In this document: in pieces, positions 41,504 to 64,000 of the stretch
Position numbering within the stretch: the first letter of the stretch is position 1
Layout of the letters: each line of letters opens with the position of its first letter
DNA from: Gentiana macrophylla
Taxonomy: Eukaryota > Streptophyta > Magnoliopsida > Gentianales > Gentianaceae
DNA: 64,000 nt
Reading direction: 5' to 3'
NCBI GenBank assembly: GCA_026214975.1
Contig: CM047815.1
Span: 59,713,852-59,777,851 of the forward strand
Translations under genes and position numbers: made by a program
The notes under the pieces: generated by a model
The model's input: only the letters and a program-made list of their open reading frames with translations
What the model was told of the DNA's origin: nothing
Database searches by the model: none

Positions 41504-43111
41504 TGTTCGGTAAAAACTAGTTTTAAATTTATAATTACCGGAACACCCCAAGTGCAAGGCTCGTAGTAAAGGTGTTACCGGGTCGTCCTAAGAGAATCGA
41601 ACGTCTATCGGATTAAGTACAGTTATTGTATCGATTATGTCACAAATTATTATCTAAAACTAAGGTATATATTAATTATAATCTAGAAACTATGACTAGA
41701 AACAGAAAATAGCAGAAAATAGAACAAAAACGACACTGGACGGGCGTTCACTGATGTGGACGGGCGTCCAATTATGATCTAAAAACAGAAAATATGCAGA
41801 AAACAACAGGTAAAAGCTAGGGTTTTTAAAATAACTAAACGCAGCAATAAAAGTTGATATGAACGAATCGGTTTATCAAATAATTAAAAGAACGGCAAGG
41901 CAACAAGAATCCACCAATCAACCAACCAACCCCAACTAGATTGTGCACTAAAGATACGATTTTTAGTAATGATCAAATCACGAATTCGATTAAATCTCTT
42001 TAATCAATTTCTAGGGTTTCGTTTTCTTTCTCAAGCAAAACTAAACTAGCATGCATAACAAGATCATGAGATTGTCTCCAATACTCTACTCAATTAATCA
42101 TAAACAATCTCTTGAATTACAATTAATTGCATCAATTGAAAAGATCAAAGCTTGAACAATACTCTCATATAAATTCAATCAAAACGGTAGTTTCATCGAC
42201 CTCTCGATTCAATAAAACATAAACGATAAATCACAACGTTCAATTGATGAAAAACCATAAATTTAACTCACTAAAGATGTAGCTAAAAATCCTCTAGTTG
42301 GTGTAGTTGTTGATTGGTTTCCTCTGTTGTCCCACCGCGAATTGCTTAGCCAACAATCATATTGGTGATCATGATTGTTGGGATGGATGAATTCATCTCC
42401 TTGTTTGCTCTGAATGTGATGTGCGGCCGCTGTGTGTTTTTTTGGTGTGTAAAAATCTGCTTTTAGGGTTTAGAATGCGCTGCTATTTATAGATTTTTAA
42501 GGCGGCTAGGGTTAGGTCGGCTACTGGACGCCCGTCCAGAAAGGTAGACGCCCGTCCAGGCTTCACAAAATTCATCGAGTCGGGCCGAGTCTTCTTGGAC
42601 GCCCGTCCTATACAAAAATGGACGCTCGTCTGTTGAAATTTCCACAACTCTGAATCAAATATCTCCTCCTGGACGCCAGTCTGGAATAGTGGACGCTCGT
42701 CCACCTAGGACCTTTCTTCTTTGAATCGAATAAGCCTTCGGGCGCCCGTCGATCTCTTCAAACGCCCGTCCACTGGACGGATGCAATGGACGCCAGTTCA
42801 GCCATATAAACCTTCATGCCAATCTCAAACTTGCATCTTTCTCTTTCCTTTAATCTTCAATCAAACACCGTTCTAGCTCCTTTCACAACATGCAAGCATA
42901 CCTACAAGGCGATAGAAACGAGCAAAGTGTAAAATCGTACAAAAACACATAAAAACTACGTAAACAACTCGATTCTTCACTTTTAAACATTTCAAACTCC
43001 ATTCTCTCAATTTATCCTTTTAGCAAGTGATTTTCTATAAAAAAAACACTAAAACACGGAAGATATTGTTATGAAGTAACTCGATATAAACCACAAAATT
43101 AGTCGTAAACA
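41504..43111 (-). repeat. Element E 3' LTR (1608 bp)
   Basis: Plus-strand ends TGTTCGGTAAAAAC and AGTCGTAAACA. TATAAATA on the minus strand at 42484-42491. Motif cluster TGGACGCCCGTCCA and relatives at 42525-42800, and two more at 41737 and 41757. The short frame 42483-42704 is made of the motif cluster and is not a gene. Confidence 0.92.
42525..42802 (-). repeat. Cluster of TGGACGCCCGTCCA-like motifs, E 3' LTR
   Basis: Copies at 42525-42538 (exact), 42545, 42596, 42619, 42670 and 42689, plus weaker ones near 42740, 42760 and 42787. They lie just upstream of the TATA box on the minus strand, as in solo LTR F. The 5' LTR has the same set at 52320-52595. Confidence 0.8.
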
Positions 43112-51301: not shown

Positions 51302-52907
51302 TGTTCGGTAAAAGCTAGTTTTAAATTTATAATTACCGAACACCCCAAGTGCAAGGCTCGTAGTAAAGGTGTTACCGGTCGCCCTAAGGGAATCGAACGC
51401 TCATCGGATTAAGTACGCTTATTGTATCGATTATGTCACAAATTATTATCTAAAACTAAGGTATATATTAATTATAATCTAGAAACTATGACTAGAAACA
51501 GAAAATAGCAGAAAATAGAACAAAAACGACACTGGACGGGCGTTCACTGATGTGGACGGGCGTCCGATTACGATCTAAAAACAGAAAATATGCAGAAAAC
51601 AGCAGGTAAAAGCTAGGGTTTTTAAAATAACTAAACGCAGCAATAAAAGTTGATATGAACGAATCGGTTTATCAAATAATTAAAAGAACGGCAAGGCAAC
51701 AAGAATCCACCAATCAACCAACCAACCCCAACTAGATTGTGCACTAAAGATACGATTTTTAGTAATGATCAAATCACGAATTCGATTAAATCTCTTTAAT
51801 CAATTTCTAGGGTTTCGTTTTCTTTCTTAAGCAAAACTAAACTAGCATACATAACAAGATCATGAGATTGTCTCCAATACTCTACTCAATTAATCATAAA
51901 CAATCTCTTGAATTACAATTAATTGCATCAATTGAAAAGATCAAAGCTTGAACAATACTCTCATATAAATTCAATCAAAACGGTAGTTTCATCGACCTCT
52001 CGATTCAATAAAACATAAACGATAAATCACAACGTTCAATTGATGAAAAACCATAAATTTAACACACTAAAGATGTAGCTAAAAATCCTCTAGTTGGTGT
52101 AGTTGTTGATTGGTTTCTCTGTTGTCCCACCGCTGATTATGCTTAGCCAACAATCATATTGGTGATCATGATTGTTGGGATGGAAGAATTCATCTCCTTG
52201 TTTGCTCAATGTGATGTCGCGGCCGCCAGTGTGTTTTTTGTGTGTAAAAATCTGCTTTTAGGGTTTAGAATGCGCTGCTATTTATAGATTTTTAAGGCGG
52301 CTAGGGTTAGGTCGGCTACTGGACGCCCGTCCAGAAAGGTAGACGCCCGTCCAGGCTTCACAAAATTCATTGAGTCGGGCCGAGTCTTCTTGGACGCCCG
52401 TCCTATACAAAAATGGACGCTCGTCTGCTGAAATTTCCACAACTCTGAATCAAATATCTCCTCCTGGACGCCAGTCTGGAATAGTGGACGCTCGTCCACC
52501 TAGGACCTTTCTTCTTTGAATCGAATAAGCCTTCTGGACGCCCGTCTGATCCTTCAAACGCCCGTCCACTGGACGGATGCAATGGACGCCAGTTCAGCCA
52601 TATAAACCTTCATGCCAATCTTAAACTTGCATCTTTCTCTTTCCTTTAATCTTCAATCAAACACCGTTCTAGATCCTTTCACAACATGCAAGCATACCTA
52701 CAAGGCGATAGAAACGAGCAAAGTGTAAAATCGTACAAAAACACATAAAAACTACGTAAACAACTCGATTCTTCACTTTTAAACATTTCAAACTCCATTC
52801 TCTCAATTTATCCTTTTAGCAAGTGATTTTCTATAAAAAAAACACTAAAACACGGAAGATATTGTTACGAAGTAACTCGATATAAACCACAAAATTAGTC
52901 ATAAACA
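51302..52907 (-). repeat. Element E 5' LTR (1606 bp)
   Basis: Plus-strand ends TGTTCGGTAAAAGC and AGTCATAAACA. It matches 41504-43111 throughout with scattered substitutions and tiny indels. TATAAATA on the minus strand at 52279-52286; motif cluster at 52320-52595. Confidence 0.92.
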
Positions 52908-58656: not shown

Positions 58657-58668
58657 TTTTTTTTGCAG
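58639..58668 (+). promoter_or_regulatory. Gag-pol boundary segment of copia B (GT...AG, 30 nt)
   Basis: GTACCTAAAGC to TTTTTTTTGCAG, with an eight-T run before GCAG. Gag and pol are in the same frame, separated by the TAA inside. Confidence 0.55.
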
Positions 58669-59634
58669 GATATTTGGTACTTTGACAGTGGATGCTCGAG
58701 GCACATGACAAAGAGCAAGGACTGTCTCACTGATTTTTTAGCCAAAGATGGACCCAGAGTCAATTTTGAAAGTAAAGACAAACCTGGTTACACAAAAGGT
58801 TATGGAAACTTAATCAGAAATGGACTCACAATCAAGAATATATCTTACGTGGAAGGAATACACTACAATCTACTCAGCACAAGTCAATTCTGCGATATGG
58901 GATACAAAGTTAACTTTGATAAGGAGTATTGCATTGTCGTCAGCGAAACAGCTTTCCAAGTAGTTCTTGCTGGAAGAAGAGAAGAGAATATGTACGTTGT
59001 AGATTGGTCTACAGCAGTTATAGAAACTTGTTTGATCGTGCATACCAAGTCAGAACTCAGTTGGCTGTGCCACAAGAAACCGAGTCTCCTAAACTTTGAT
59101 GATATCAACCTGTTAGTCAAAAAGAACTTAGTGATTGGACTACCAGAGATGACATACAAGAAAGACAGTCTGTGTGATGCATGTCAACAAGGAAAACAAA
59201 CAAAAGCAAGTTTCAGGACTAAGTCTCAGCATTCAACAAACAGAGTTTTAGAACTGGTACATATGGACTTGTTTGGACCAGTTACACCAATCAGTGTTAG
59301 TGGAAAGAAATACACTTTGGTGGTGGTTGATGACTTTTCTAGATACACTTGGGTTATTTTCATGACCAAGAAAAGTGAGACCAAGCAGCAACTGACCGAA
59401 CTTCTCAATAGACTTCAAAATCAGAAGAGTGTTACAGTAATCAAGATCAGATCAGATAAAGGAACAGAATTTCTCAACAACATAATCATTGAATATTGTG
59501 GAGAAAATGGAGTTCTACACCATCTTGCAGCTACGGAAACACCTCAACAGAATGGAGTAGCTGAAAGGAGAAATAGAACACTCAAAGAAGCTGGAAGAAC
59601 AATGATCTGTGAATCTAAACTGCCAGAAAGATAA
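58669..59634 (+). CDS. pol: Copia B protease-integrase (open fragment)
   Basis: Protease DIWYFDSGCSRHMTKSK with intact DSG, then KDGPRVNFESKDKPGY; pre-integrase region (NMYVVDWSTAV, CDACQQGKQ; the His of the usual LWHKKLSHLN reads LCHKKPSLLN, so the zinc site is damaged); integrase core with VHMDLFGPVT, IRSDKGTEFLN and QNGVAERRNRT, so all three catalytic residues remain. It is closed by a TAA at 59632-59634 where a Trp codon context (ERYWAEA) is expected one codon later. Confidence 0.85.
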   Translation, partial: DIWYFDSGCSRHMTKSKDCLTDFLAKDGPRVNFESKDKPGYTKGYGNLIRNGLTIKNISYVEGIHYNLLSTSQFCDMGYKVNFDKEYCIVVSETAFQVVLAGRREENMYVVDWSTAVIETCLIVHTKSELSWLCHKKPSLLNFDDINLLVKKNLVIGLPEMTYKKDSLCDACQQGKQTKASFRTKSQHSTNRVLELVHMDLFGPVTPISVSGKKYTLVVVDDFSRYTWVIFMTKKSETKQQLTELLNRLQNQKSVTVIKIRSDKGTEFLNNIIIEYCGENGVLHHLAATETPQQNGVAERRNRTLKEAGRTMICESKLPER

Positions 59635-60291
59635 TGGGCAGAAGCTGTGAATACTGCCTGTTATACACATAATCGAGCTCTCATGAACAAGAGACATGAA
59701 AAGACACCTTATGAGATTTGGAATGGAAGAAAACCAAATGTCTCATACTTTCACGCCTTTGGAAGCAAATGTTTTGTTCACAATAATGGCAAAGATCAGC
59801 TCAAATTTTTTCAACCCAAAACTGATGAATGAATATTTCTGGGATACTTGAGTGTCAGTAAATCTTTTAGAGTATTAAATAAATGGACACTCAAGCATGA
59901 AGAATCGATACATGTGGTTTTTGATGAACCAAAGTTTACTGGAGACACAATTGAAGACAAGGATGAAACAGTTTGTCAGCCTCGGTCAAACAAGACTCCA
60001 GAACCAGTTTTCATTGATATTGGAAGATTAAATATCTCAGACTCTTTAGATCAAGATCAACCTCAGATACCAGTGACTGAACCAGTAACTGAACCAGCAA
60101 CTGAACAACAACAAGAAGAAACTGATCCAGTTGATAATAATCATAATAAAGAAGAACCAGCTCAACAAAATGAAGACCCGTTGATGCAACCCCCAGTACA
60201 TCAATGGATGAGAAATCACCCTGAAGAACAAGTGATAGGTGATTTTCAAGCTGGAGTTCATACAAGACACCAATTAGATGCTACCACATAA
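59635..60291 (+). pseudogene. pol: Copia B integrase C-terminus and linker to RT
   Basis: Open pieces 59647-59832 (TPYEIWNGRKPNVSYFH) and 59848-60291 (ESIHVVFDEPKFTG, a repeated PVTEP linker, EEQVIGDFQAGVHTRHQ), separated by a TGA at 59830. It is cut at 60291 by LTR H inside the codons that lead to the RT. Confidence 0.8.
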
Positions 60292-60596
60292 AGGATGTAG
60301 TTTCTTTGCGCAGCAGATGGATCACTATTTACAAATTACAATACATAAATAAAGGATCTAAATTCCTACAAGGGGGTTTAGTATGTCTTACCAATAGCAG
60401 GAAGAGAAGCCAAGATCTTCCAATGTGTTCTCCAAACGGTGGTTGGTGGACACCAATTATTGGTACTAGAACCTCCTTGATATGCTTCCAAGAAAAAACT
60501 ACAAGTTTTTCTTCAACCAGAAACCCAAGACAAGAAAAAGTTTTTCTCTCTATTTTTGTGTGTGTATGTCGAAAAAAACCTTTCACATATGTCTTG

Positions 60597-60630
60597 TGAT
60601 GTGAAATTGCGCGGATCTATATTTACATCA
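60597..60630 (-). repeat. Element S LTR (3' copy)
   Basis: 34 bp; minus strand begins TGATGTAAATATAGATCC and ends TTTCACATCA. Ends are mirrored (TGATGT/ACATCA). Confidence 0.85.
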
Positions 60631-60655
60631 TTCCCTCCCGGTTGTGAGGATTCGT
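60631..60655 (-). other. Element S polypurine tract and gypsy-like pol end
   Basis: Minus-strand CCGGGAGGGAA touches the 3' LTR. Just upstream is TCGAGGACGAATCC (to about 60660). Confidence 0.65.
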
Positions 60656-60797
60656 CCTCGAATCAAAAGAATGTCGTATAGTTCAGAATCAAACACCATT
60701 CTTAAATAAATCCAAAATATCACCCAACAAACACCGGGATCAAATATAAGCCGAATACACAACTTCAAAATTGCATGCTGATGTCGAGATCCCCACT

Positions 60798-61463
60798 TCA
60801 CAAAAGCAACGTGAGAAGTGTATCTTGGTTTGATATAAACGTTGATGGCCCTCGGAATAGCGGAAACATATTCATAGAAACTCGGTGTCGGATAACCATC
60901 AAAACATTTAGCAAAAGGATCAATATATATATGTGCGCCGGTTTTCCACCAAGGTGTCCTCGTTTAAAAACCTTTGTATCTAATAAGCTTTCCACAACGG
61001 GGTAATGATCATGTTCAATACATTCCTCCAACATCCCTTCTTCTGTAATCACAAATTCAGAACTTTGCCCGTCTTCAATTGTTTCGGTAATTTGAACTTC
61101 ATCGTCAACAATTAATCCCTCATCATGTATTACTACTTCTTCCACAATATCCTCTAAATTCTCTTGAGATATCTCTACTTTCTCATCAACGAATTCAGAT
61201 TCACATTCTTTCTCAATCTCCACAACTTTCTCACATTCCTCCGCTTTCAACTCCACCTTACTATTGTTCTTCGCTTTATCCTCTTCAATCCATTTATTTA
61301 TCATTTCCTCCACGGTTCGAATAATATCATCCTTAAGACTTCTTATAAATTGTTCATAATAAGCAATATCATGATTCTTTGACTTTTTGTGCCCTACAAT
61401 TTCAGCCTTTACCTTTCCTTTTTCCAACTTCCTCCGTACCTGAGATTCCTCAGAAAGTAACAT
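60798..61463 (-). pseudogene. Acidic coding region of element S (221 codons open, likely frameshifted)
   Basis: It starts MLLSEESQVRRKLEKGK, has a helical Lys/Glu part (YYEQFIRSLKDDIIRTVEEM; about residues 35-60), then a very acidic stretch (residues 70-150) and HDHYPVVESLLDTKVF. After AHIYI (about 60925) the frame changes character at a TATATATA run; a neighbouring frame reads DPFAKCFDGYPTPSFYEYV and continues without a stop to about 60775, so a 2-base slip is likely. It is in the sense of the element. No gag, protease or RT motif is seen. It may be a captured host gene piece or a remnant of a larger element. Type and function unknown. Confidence 0.5.
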
Positions 61464-61891
61464 AGTGTAGTTATAAATAAATGAAAAGATCTTGGAATTC
61501 GAACAGAGCGTTGGGGTGCTGTTTTGAACACGTTATGTTTCGAATTTTGAGATGAAGTCAAGATAGAAAAGATAGATAAATTGATGGTTTAGATGTGGTA
61601 AAAATTTGAGGTCGTTTGGAGATGTATAGGTTGGCCAAACAATCAGATTTCTGAAACCGGTGCAATCTGTCAGAATAATTTCCAGAATTACAACAGTGAC
61701 TTACGTCCCAGATTGTTGCCAAACGGTTGAGAATTTAGAAAAACTCAAAGAACAAAAGTTGTATAACACGAAATTTTATATGAGATTACCAAAATTGAAG
61801 AGTTTTGGACAGAATTACCGTAGTCAAAATAAAGTTGGAATACAAACTGTCACTGCAGATAATGATATAATACCGTCGATTCCGCCTTGTT

Positions 61892-61904
61892 CTCTGATAC
61901 CAAC
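61892..61904 (-). other. Element S primer binding site
   Basis: Minus-strand GTTGGTATCAGAG follows the 34-bp LTR directly; eleven bases match the initiator-Met tRNA complement. Confidence 0.75.
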
Positions 61905-61938
61905 TGATGTGAAATTGCGCGGATATATATTTACATCA
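61905..61938 (-). repeat. Element S LTR (5' copy)
   Basis: 34 bp, one base different from 60597-60630. The AAATATATAT core could serve as a minimal TATA box. Confidence 0.85.
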
Positions 61939-63319
61939 TCTTGGAAGAACTCTCTTTATATAGGAGAGTAAATCCTTGGCCTCCAAGTTTCTAATTAATT
62001 AAATAAATAATTAAAAAGAAATCACAATAAAAGATAATTCCATTTATAAAAGATTGTGATTAATCAATCAATCAATTACAAATCAATTATCTTTTATTAA
62101 TTAATTATTTAACTAGTAAATAATTAATCACACAAGAAAATCAATTCTTGCACTTTGTGACATGGGAGGCGCCACACCTAGTGTTTTAGGCCCACAGAAA
62201 ATGTATTTTCTGTGTATTATATTATTTAGCCCAACTAAATAATATTTCACATATCAATTAATTGGCCCAGCCAATTAATTATCACTGAGTCCCAATAACA
62301 AGAAAAATACCCGAATTACAGGAGCCACATTGGGGACCATGGACCTATAACCAATAGCTCCAATAATTAAGTAAAATATTCATCGAACAGAATATTCATA
62401 CTTAAATTATTAATTCCAGGATTACGCCACCATAAACCCGAAACTGGACTCTACCAATTATAGATATATACTTACACTCAACCCTATGAGTAAATAAGTG
62501 TCCACTGATATAATCACTACATACGGACGAACCCTCCATAGACTATCCATTCTGAGTGGGAAGTCTCCGTGAACCCGACTCAGAATATTTTATCCTTATT
62601 TACCATTAACCCCTAGTGATCAATTAGTTCACATATCGGACTAGTAGCTAATTAGTGTAATATGAACTGGGCCCATCGATCATTTTCTTAGGGCTAACAA
62701 ATAAGCGGACTGTCTCTCTACTTCCCGCATGAAGGAATTGATTCCATGTCTGTGAAAAATAGAACTACTCACTCATCAGGGAATAGTACCAACGAGAAGT
62801 GACTTGGATCACAAATCAAAGTGATCCGTACCTAACACATCAAACACTACCCCGAGACAAGTAGCATCCTGTGATCACCTCAGGATTAAGGTCAATCCGT
62901 ATATGATCATCTAATGATTTAATAAGATTTCCTGATTACAGAATTATATCAAGAAATTGAGATTAAATCGGTGCATCCCTATATGAATGCCATCATATAT
63001 AAATTCCCCACTTAGGTACCTTCTACCGAAAGTCCGGATAAGACTATCACACCCTAAGGTGTTCTGGTCGCATTATTGGTGTTTTAATCATGAGACCCTA
63101 AACTCTGATTAAGTTCACCACGGACTAACAGTTCAAGTATATCACCACTAACTCAATCCTCACGTGCATGCCGTACACTGAGTTAAGTGGTTACATACTG
63201 ATATACTTAGGGTTTGAAGAATGTATACTTTATAAGCACATAGCAAATAATAAGATGAATAATAAAATATGTCATAAAAATCAATTACATAAATTGTCTT
63301 TCGGGCACTACATCTAACA

Positions 63320-64000
63320 ATGATAGCATGCCTTTTGTCTCAGTCTGAACCCAAAGAGATTGAAGAAGCCTTAAAAGATTCAGATTGGATTTTGGCTATG
63401 CAAGAAGAACTCAACGAATTTGAGAGAAATCAAGTTTGGGATTTAGTTCACAAGCCAGATCATGTCAACATAATCAGAACTAAATGGGTTTTCAGAAACA
63501 AGCTTTATGAAGATGGGAATATTATCAGAAACAAAGCCAGAATTGTAGCAAAAGGTTACTCACAAGCTGTAGAGATAGAATTTGATGAAACTTATGCCCC
63601 AGTTGCAAGGTTGGAGGCAATCAGACTATTTCTTGCCTTTGCAGCTCATAAGAAATTCAAAGTGTACTAGATGGATGTTAAAAGTGTATTTTTGAAGAAG
63701 AAGAAGAAGAAGAAGAAGAAGTCTATGTTCCGCAACCACCAGGATTTGAAATTAAAGATCAAGCTGATAAAGTCTTTAAACTGAGAAAAGCTCTTTATGG
63801 ACTCAAAAGAGCTTGGTATGAAACTATATCTCAGTTTCTGGTGGACAATGGTTTTACAAAAGGAACCATTGATAAAACCTTATTCAGAATGAAAGTTGAA
63901 GAAAGTACTCTCCTAGTTCAAATCTATGTGGATGACATCATTTTTGGATCAGAAAATGAACAACTCTGTGAGAAATTTGCAAGTTTAATGAAGAGCAAAT
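63320..64000 (+). pseudogene. pol: Copia B reverse transcriptase, N-terminal part (broken, runs off window)
   Basis: The open piece 63320-63670 has [61 protein letters not shown] and KKFKVY. TAG at 63668 replaces the usual Gln before MDVKS. A (GAA)n expansion at 63692-63721 shifts the frame. Downstream text in other frames has QPPGFEIKDQ, LYGLK joined to RAWYET with the usual QAP missing, and YVDDIIFGSE near 63930-63960. The RT continues past the window. Confidence 0.8.
63692..63721. repeat. (GAA)n microsatellite in copia B RT
   Basis: About ten GAA/AGA units where the relatives encode LEEEVYV; it has grown out of the Glu codons. Confidence 0.85.

What the first reader, a model, noticed from the sequence alone, without database searches (positions are those of the whole stretch)
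60597..61938. An LTR retrotransposon with 34-bp LTRs
Direct terminal repeats of 34 bp, TG...CA ends, a 5-bp duplication (TCTTG), a primer site beside one repeat and a polypurine tract beside the other are all seen in order. This rules out truncation of normal LTRs because both repeats touch the duplication. Such short LTRs must hold promoter and RNA-end signals in 34 bases, or the element must borrow transcription from a neighbour. The ends TGATGT/ACATCA are themselves inverted.
Basis: partly seen in the sequence, partly recalled or inferred. Interest (0 to 1): 0.88.

Follow-up and report, generated by a model that had tools for sequence, protein, structure and literature searches.

The report
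Retrotransposon copy with collapsed terminal repeats
This retrotransposon copy has terminal repeats of only 34 bases because both lack the same 763-base middle that its closest relative found carries, likely through a single slip of reverse transcription before it inserted; no second copy with these short repeats was found in its genome, so it looks like a one-off and not a new kind of element.

Summary
Window 60597-61938 is one insertion with 34-bp direct repeats (33/34 identical), TG...CA ends, a TCTTG duplication, primer site and polypurine tract; it reads on the minus strand. Thirty of 30 fetched copies of the resident LTR show the site empty.

Relatives in the same genome have long LTRs, mostly 719-803 bp. 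The 34-mer is the first 11-15 plus last 23-19 bases of a 797-bp LTR, joined at a 4-base TAGA match; 763 bp are missing from both LTRs, TATA box included. The 34-mer occurs nowhere else in 1.79 Gb at up to 3 mismatches.

Best explanation: an aberrant first-strand transfer, with TAGA standing in for the R region, shortened both LTRs in one round of reverse transcription before integration. The shared deletion and intact duplication are shown; the strand transfer is inferred. A duplicated relative (L016/L021) gives the contrast: loss after insertion hit one LTR only. Gag and protease in LTR-sharing relatives point to Ty3/gypsy. A neat molecular fossil of modest interest.

The parts
60597..61938 (-). 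whole element, 1342 bp
61905..61938 (-). 5' LTR, 34 bp (one substitution at the join, TATA for TAGA)
60597..60630 (-). 3' LTR, 34 bp, exactly LTR797 bases 1-15 plus 779-797 (join TAGA)
61892..61903 (-). primer binding site TTGGTATCAGAG (initiator tRNA-Met type, recalled)
60632..60639 (-). polypurine tract GGGAGGGA
60592..60596 (.). target duplication TCTTG
61939..61943 (.). target duplication TCTTG
60798..61463 (-). 221-aa open frame; relatives carry 277-311 aa frames at the same start; no Pfam family above cut-off
61955..61962 (-). TATATAAA of the resident LTR, starting 24 bases before the element, same direction
   Evidence: function inferred
60291..63319 (-). resident LTR copy (limits approximate, element excluded) into which the element inserted

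Best explanation
The element is a one-off derivative of a retrotransposon family with LTRs of about 800 bases, and its two 34-base LTRs likely arose together in one faulty round of reverse transcription, when the growing first DNA strand would have jumped from the end of U5 to the start of U3 across four matching bases (TAGA) and so skipped 763 bases of LTR. Shown: the 34-mer is the two ends of the 797-bp LTR of L002; both LTRs have the same join (one base differs in the 5' LTR); both touch one 5-bp duplication; the site is empty in other copies of the resident LTR; no other copy of the 34-mer was found in this assembly. Inferred: both LTRs of a new copy are made from the single U3-R-U5 assembled at first-strand transfer (textbook retroviral scheme, also described in PMC1950507), so one aberrant transfer shortens both; an RNA with cryptic ends whose only terminal repeat was TAGA would give the same product. 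Integrase would then have accepted ends with at most 15 bases of U3 and 23 of U5. Having lost the TATA box and all between, the product is predicted not to start its own transcription, which fits its being single.
For: Relatives with long LTRs, 92.9-96.4% identical inside. The 3' LTR is reproduced exactly by LTR797 ends at five equivalent cuts, i.e. a 4-base match; 4,988 of 242,556 breakpoint pairs (2.06%) give 4 or more. TATA box at 455. Only this element's two LTRs match the 34-mer. Exact gap patterns for LTRs of 18-48 bp before the primer site gave this element and one unrelated match, for 49-79 bp none, with the reversed control giving 1 and 1. Among 87 primer-site junctions, all looked at (61 in 434-base stretches, 26 in larger loci), this is the only 34-bp LTR; 59 of the 61 have at least 150 bp of family LTR upstream, L096 has 68 bp then an inverted junction, L089 matches neither reference LTR. 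Contrast: L016 and L021 share flanks and the TAAGG duplication, and only the 5' LTR of L016 is short, 155 against 723 bp. Gene conversion would have only 15- and 19-base arms of homology (sequence).
Against: No cDNA intermediate was seen; the strand transfer is inferred from the product. There is one such element, so recurrence is not shown. A 4-base match is also typical of DNA end joining. A donor with one short LTR may be lost or absent from this assembly, and pattern searches allow few mismatches. The 5' LTR departs from the exact join by one base, at the join. The U5 end shows no unusual fold that would stall reverse transcriptase (z 0.99).
Confidence: 0.72

Rival explanations
1. Two steps: a microhomology deletion first shortened one LTR of a donor copy; its RNA was then reverse transcribed and the short LTR copied to both ends.
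For: One-sided LTR deletions occur in this family (L016); 4-base match.
Against: No donor with this join in the genome at up to 3 mismatches. A donor that lost R in one LTR would still need an unusual strand transfer (inference).
Confidence: 0.13
2. Loss after insertion: full LTRs were inserted, then both lost the same middle, either independently or by conversion of one LTR from the other.
For: DNA deletions in single LTRs exist here (L016).
Against: The LTR has 912 distinct deletion products of at least 100 bp with a 4-base or longer match, and 178,072 in all, so two independent identical losses are unlikely if they are anything like evenly spread; conversion would have to work with 15- and 19-base arms.
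Confidence: 0.08
3. One reading: a working family with 34-bp LTRs that hold their own signals or borrow a neighbour's promoter.
For: LTRs, duplication, primer site and purine tract are all in order. A TATA box of the resident LTR starts 24 bases upstream in the same direction.
Against: No second copy; long LTRs in relatives; promoter in the missing part.
Confidence: 0.04
4. RNA splicing removed the middle of the LTR before reverse transcription.
For: GT follows base 15 of LTR797 and CCTAG ends at base 777 (read from the sequence).
Against: Splicing there would leave TATAGAATCC, one base longer than the observed TATAGATCC; a line printed under that name did not test this. One LTR of a single RNA would also not be whole between these sites at both ends.
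Confidence: 0.01

Closest known systems
Family members with 794-803-bp LTRs in the same genome (L002, L013, L019, L022)
   Same: Internal region 94.9-96.4% identical, same primer site, LTR start TGATGTAAATATAGAG, same LTR end
   Different: LTRs about 800 bp; all but L002 carry a further 91-96 bp inside that the window copy lacks
TRIM elements (Gao et al. 2016, PMC4717578; passages read)
   Same: Non-autonomous with very short LTRs; the smallest there is CcaRetroS9, 233 bp with 52-bp LTRs
   Different: CcaRetroS9 has 10 complete copies; this is a 1342-bp singleton derived from a long-LTR family
SMART / FRetro129 (Gao et al. 2012, PMC3281118; passages read)
   Same: Small non-autonomous element, 85-bp repeats, 5-bp duplication
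   Different: 292 bp, many copies, with a TATA motif in the LTR
Template-switch LTR-retrotransposon complexes in Triticeae (Sabot and Schulman 2007, PMC1950507; text read)
   Same: Aberrant strand transfer inferred from target duplications and matching outer LTRs
   Different: There two RNAs are joined and an LTR is added; here most of U3-R-U5 would be skipped and both LTRs shortened
Self-inactivating retroviral vectors (recalled, no call)
   Same: A deletion in one LTR template appears in both LTRs after reverse transcription
   Different: Engineered, R kept; here R is gone

Membership tests
LTR retrotransposon insertion | Direct terminal repeats with TG...CA ends | tested here: met
   34 bp, 33/34 identical
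LTR retrotransposon insertion | Target-site duplication and empty site | tested here: met
   TCTTG on both sides; 30 of 30 fetched resident-LTR loci empty; 40 of 40 scored places span the joined site
LTR retrotransposon insertion | Primer site and polypurine tract | tested here: met
   the identity of the tRNA is recalled
Ty3/gypsy superfamily | gag and protease of that type in the family | tested here: met
   LTR-sharing relatives: L122 Retrotrans_gag 8.6e-14, L123 Retrotrans_gag 6.4e-11 and Asp_protease_2 1.3e-05; Ty3_capsid below its cut-off. Not in the window copy itself
Ty3/gypsy superfamily | Reverse transcriptase and RNase H before integrase | tested here: inconclusive
   Four frames of the three larger relatives read gave no RT or integrase; no autonomous partner was identified
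TRIM / SMART | Several copies sharing the short LTR | tested here: not met
   Only this element carries the 34-mer
TRIM / SMART | Very small element (77% of TRIMs under 1,000 bp) | tested here: not met
   1342 bp with a 221-aa frame
Product of aberrant first-strand transfer | Same internal LTR deletion in both LTRs with intact duplication | tested here: met
Product of aberrant first-strand transfer | cDNA intermediate with the join | not testable with these tools
   needs cDNA or extrachromosomal DNA reads

The most novel reading that the evidence does not exclude
Ultra-short-LTR retroelements can be born in one step: a 4-base chance match replaces the R region in first-strand transfer, both LTRs collapse to 34 bases, and integrase still inserts the product, so 15 bases of U3 and 23 of U5 are enough for integration in this genome. 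The new copy also lies 24 bases below a resident TATA box, so the 34-mer could act as a new R region under a borrowed promoter.
Probability: 0.3. Interest if true: 0.62.

Novelty: new variant of a known kind. Interest (0 to 1): 0.4.

Why it matters
How families with very short LTRs (TRIM, SMART) arise is not settled in the passages read. This copy would be a natural snapshot of one route: a single strand-transfer error that strips almost the whole LTR from both ends and yet yields an insertion. It also puts an upper bound on how much LTR end integration needs in this family. It warns annotators that a tidy short-LTR structure with a duplication need not be a family: the check is whether relatives carry the same LTR.

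Tried and rejected
A working short-LTR family: rejected for lack of a second copy and because relatives have long LTRs. Splicing: rejected because the join is one base short of a GT-AG product. A stalling hairpin at the U5 breakpoint: not supported. Naming the internal frame: no Pfam family above cut-off, no homologue at E 0.001 among 1040 word-sharing candidates. Paper searches for earlier cases of both LTRs collapsed by first-strand transfer showed none in the titles and abstract starts listed; most listed papers were not opened, so this is weak. Dating by LTR divergence was not attempted: 1 difference in 34 bases says little.

Full report
Observation. The element reads on the minus strand. 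In the window's own genome (G000, 1.79 Gb, window at C11:59713852) the joined flanks without the insert match 40 of 40 scored places (of 1887 candidates, 40 scored) at 96-97%. Thirty of these were fetched: in 30 of 30 the left flank aligns up to 60596, in 28 of 30 the right flank resumes at 61939. So this is a clean insertion into a resident LTR copy (about 60291-63319, minus strand), which itself interrupts a copia-type pol: rve and gag_pre-integrs at 58663-59634, RVT_2 at 63320-63670.

Relatives. A DNA search with the element scored 40 of 2112 candidates and gave 81 matches. The best matches stop inside the 34-mers, because there the relatives' LTRs go on. Complete relatives have internal regions 92.9-96.4% identical to the window copy. 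Their LTRs are mostly 719-803 bp; one variant has 475-480 bp (L003, L005, L011), and L016 has one LTR of 155 bp. The nearest among those compared, L002, is 96.35% identical over 1261 bases and has two 797-bp LTRs with the duplication CCGAT.

The join. LTR797 begins TGATGTAAATATAGAG and ends CCTAGATCCGCGCAATTTCACATCA. The 3' LTR of the window copy equals its first 11-15 plus last 23-19 bases at five equivalent cuts, a 4-base TAGA match; the 5' LTR has one substitution at the join. Missing are 763 of 797 bases, including the TATAAATA at 455. A match of 4 or more bases is expected at 2.06% of random breakpoint pairs in this LTR.

Singleton. At up to 3 mismatches the 34-mer occurs only at this element's two ends. 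Exact gap patterns for LTRs of 18-48 bp gave this element and one unrelated place; for 49-79 bp none, while the reversed control gave two. A 34-base pattern over LTR end and primer site gave 87 places. I looked at 87 of 87: 60 plus 1 as 434-base stretches and 26 in larger loci. Of the 61, 59 have at least 150 bp of family LTR upstream; L096 has 68 bp followed by an inverted family junction; L089 matches neither reference LTR, so its LTR length is unknown, but no LTR-start motif lies within 300 bases. Of the 26, only the window copy has 34 bp and only L016 has 155 bp.

Mechanism. A single event must explain the same loss in both LTRs of one insertion. In reverse transcription both LTRs are copied from one U3-R-U5 made at first-strand transfer (recalled; also stated in PMC1950507). 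If the first strand, having copied only the last 19-23 bases of U5, pairs through TAGA with the start of U3, both LTRs become 34 bp at once. An RNA whose ends happen to share only TAGA would do the same. This is inference. Loss after insertion looks different here: L016 and L021 carry the same TAAGG duplication, and only the 5' LTR of L016 is short. Conversion between LTRs would have 15- and 19-base arms. Two independent identical losses would have to hit one of 912 products with a 4-base or longer match. A donor with the join in one LTR is not in this assembly, but cannot be excluded elsewhere.

Target duplications of relatives. Of 11 non-array relatives with readable ends, counting repeated fetches once and leaving out the window copy, 9 have an exact 5-bp duplication, L006 has 4 of 5, L017 none (its left flank is a purine tract, as in an array); L016/L021 and L004/L006 are duplicated loci. 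Three L010 array units have none and were left out of the 11.

Family. Relatives that share the 797-type LTR carry gag and protease (L122, L123: Retrotrans_gag, Asp_protease_2), so Ty3/gypsy is likely; no reverse transcriptase or integrase was seen in the three relatives read. The window copy holds only a 221-aa frame without a Pfam family; relatives have up to 311 aa, with no homologue found.

Comparison. The shortest LTRs I met in print are 52 bp (CcaRetroS9, 10 copies; PMC4717578, passages) and 85 bp (FRetro129; PMC3281118, passages). Those are families; this is a singleton. Strand-transfer errors as a source of odd insertions are known (PMC1950507); collapse of both LTRs would be a new form of that. 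Paper searches were few and seen mostly as listings.

Present state. The resident LTR's TATATAAA starts 24 bases before the element in the same direction. Whether it drives transcription through the 34-mer is unknown. Without further copies there is no sign that it has moved again.

Noticed in passing
L010 (C8:20.15 Mb) and L011 (C9:47.09 Mb): Tandem arrays of the family, LTR-internal-LTR-internal, with unit lengths of about 2144 and 1690 bp.
   Followed up: partly
L096 with L125 (C5:76284000-76285077): An inverted leader, primer site and LTR end joined to a direct LTR end with a shared TAG, close to the U5 position where the window copy's join lies.
   Followed up: partly
L003, L005, L011: LTRs of about 475-480 bp at both ends in several places: a shorter LTR variant that has multiplied (L003 and L005 may be one duplicated locus).
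   Followed up: partly
L016 and L021 (C5:59.37 and 59.53 Mb): Same flanks and TAAGG duplication, so one insertion later duplicated; the 5' LTR of L016 has since lost about 568 bp.
   Followed up: yes
window 42787-42890 and 52583-52686: A 104-bp TG...CA repeat pair with a TGCAA duplication, 9.8 kb apart; perhaps part of a longer-LTR element.
   Followed up: no
window 54047-54036, minus strand: A second primer-site-like TTGGTATCAGAG followed by gag-like sequence with CCHC-type motifs (seen by eye).
   Followed up: no
G000:C12:237253-237295: The only other match to the short-LTR pattern; looks unrelated to the family.
   Followed up: no
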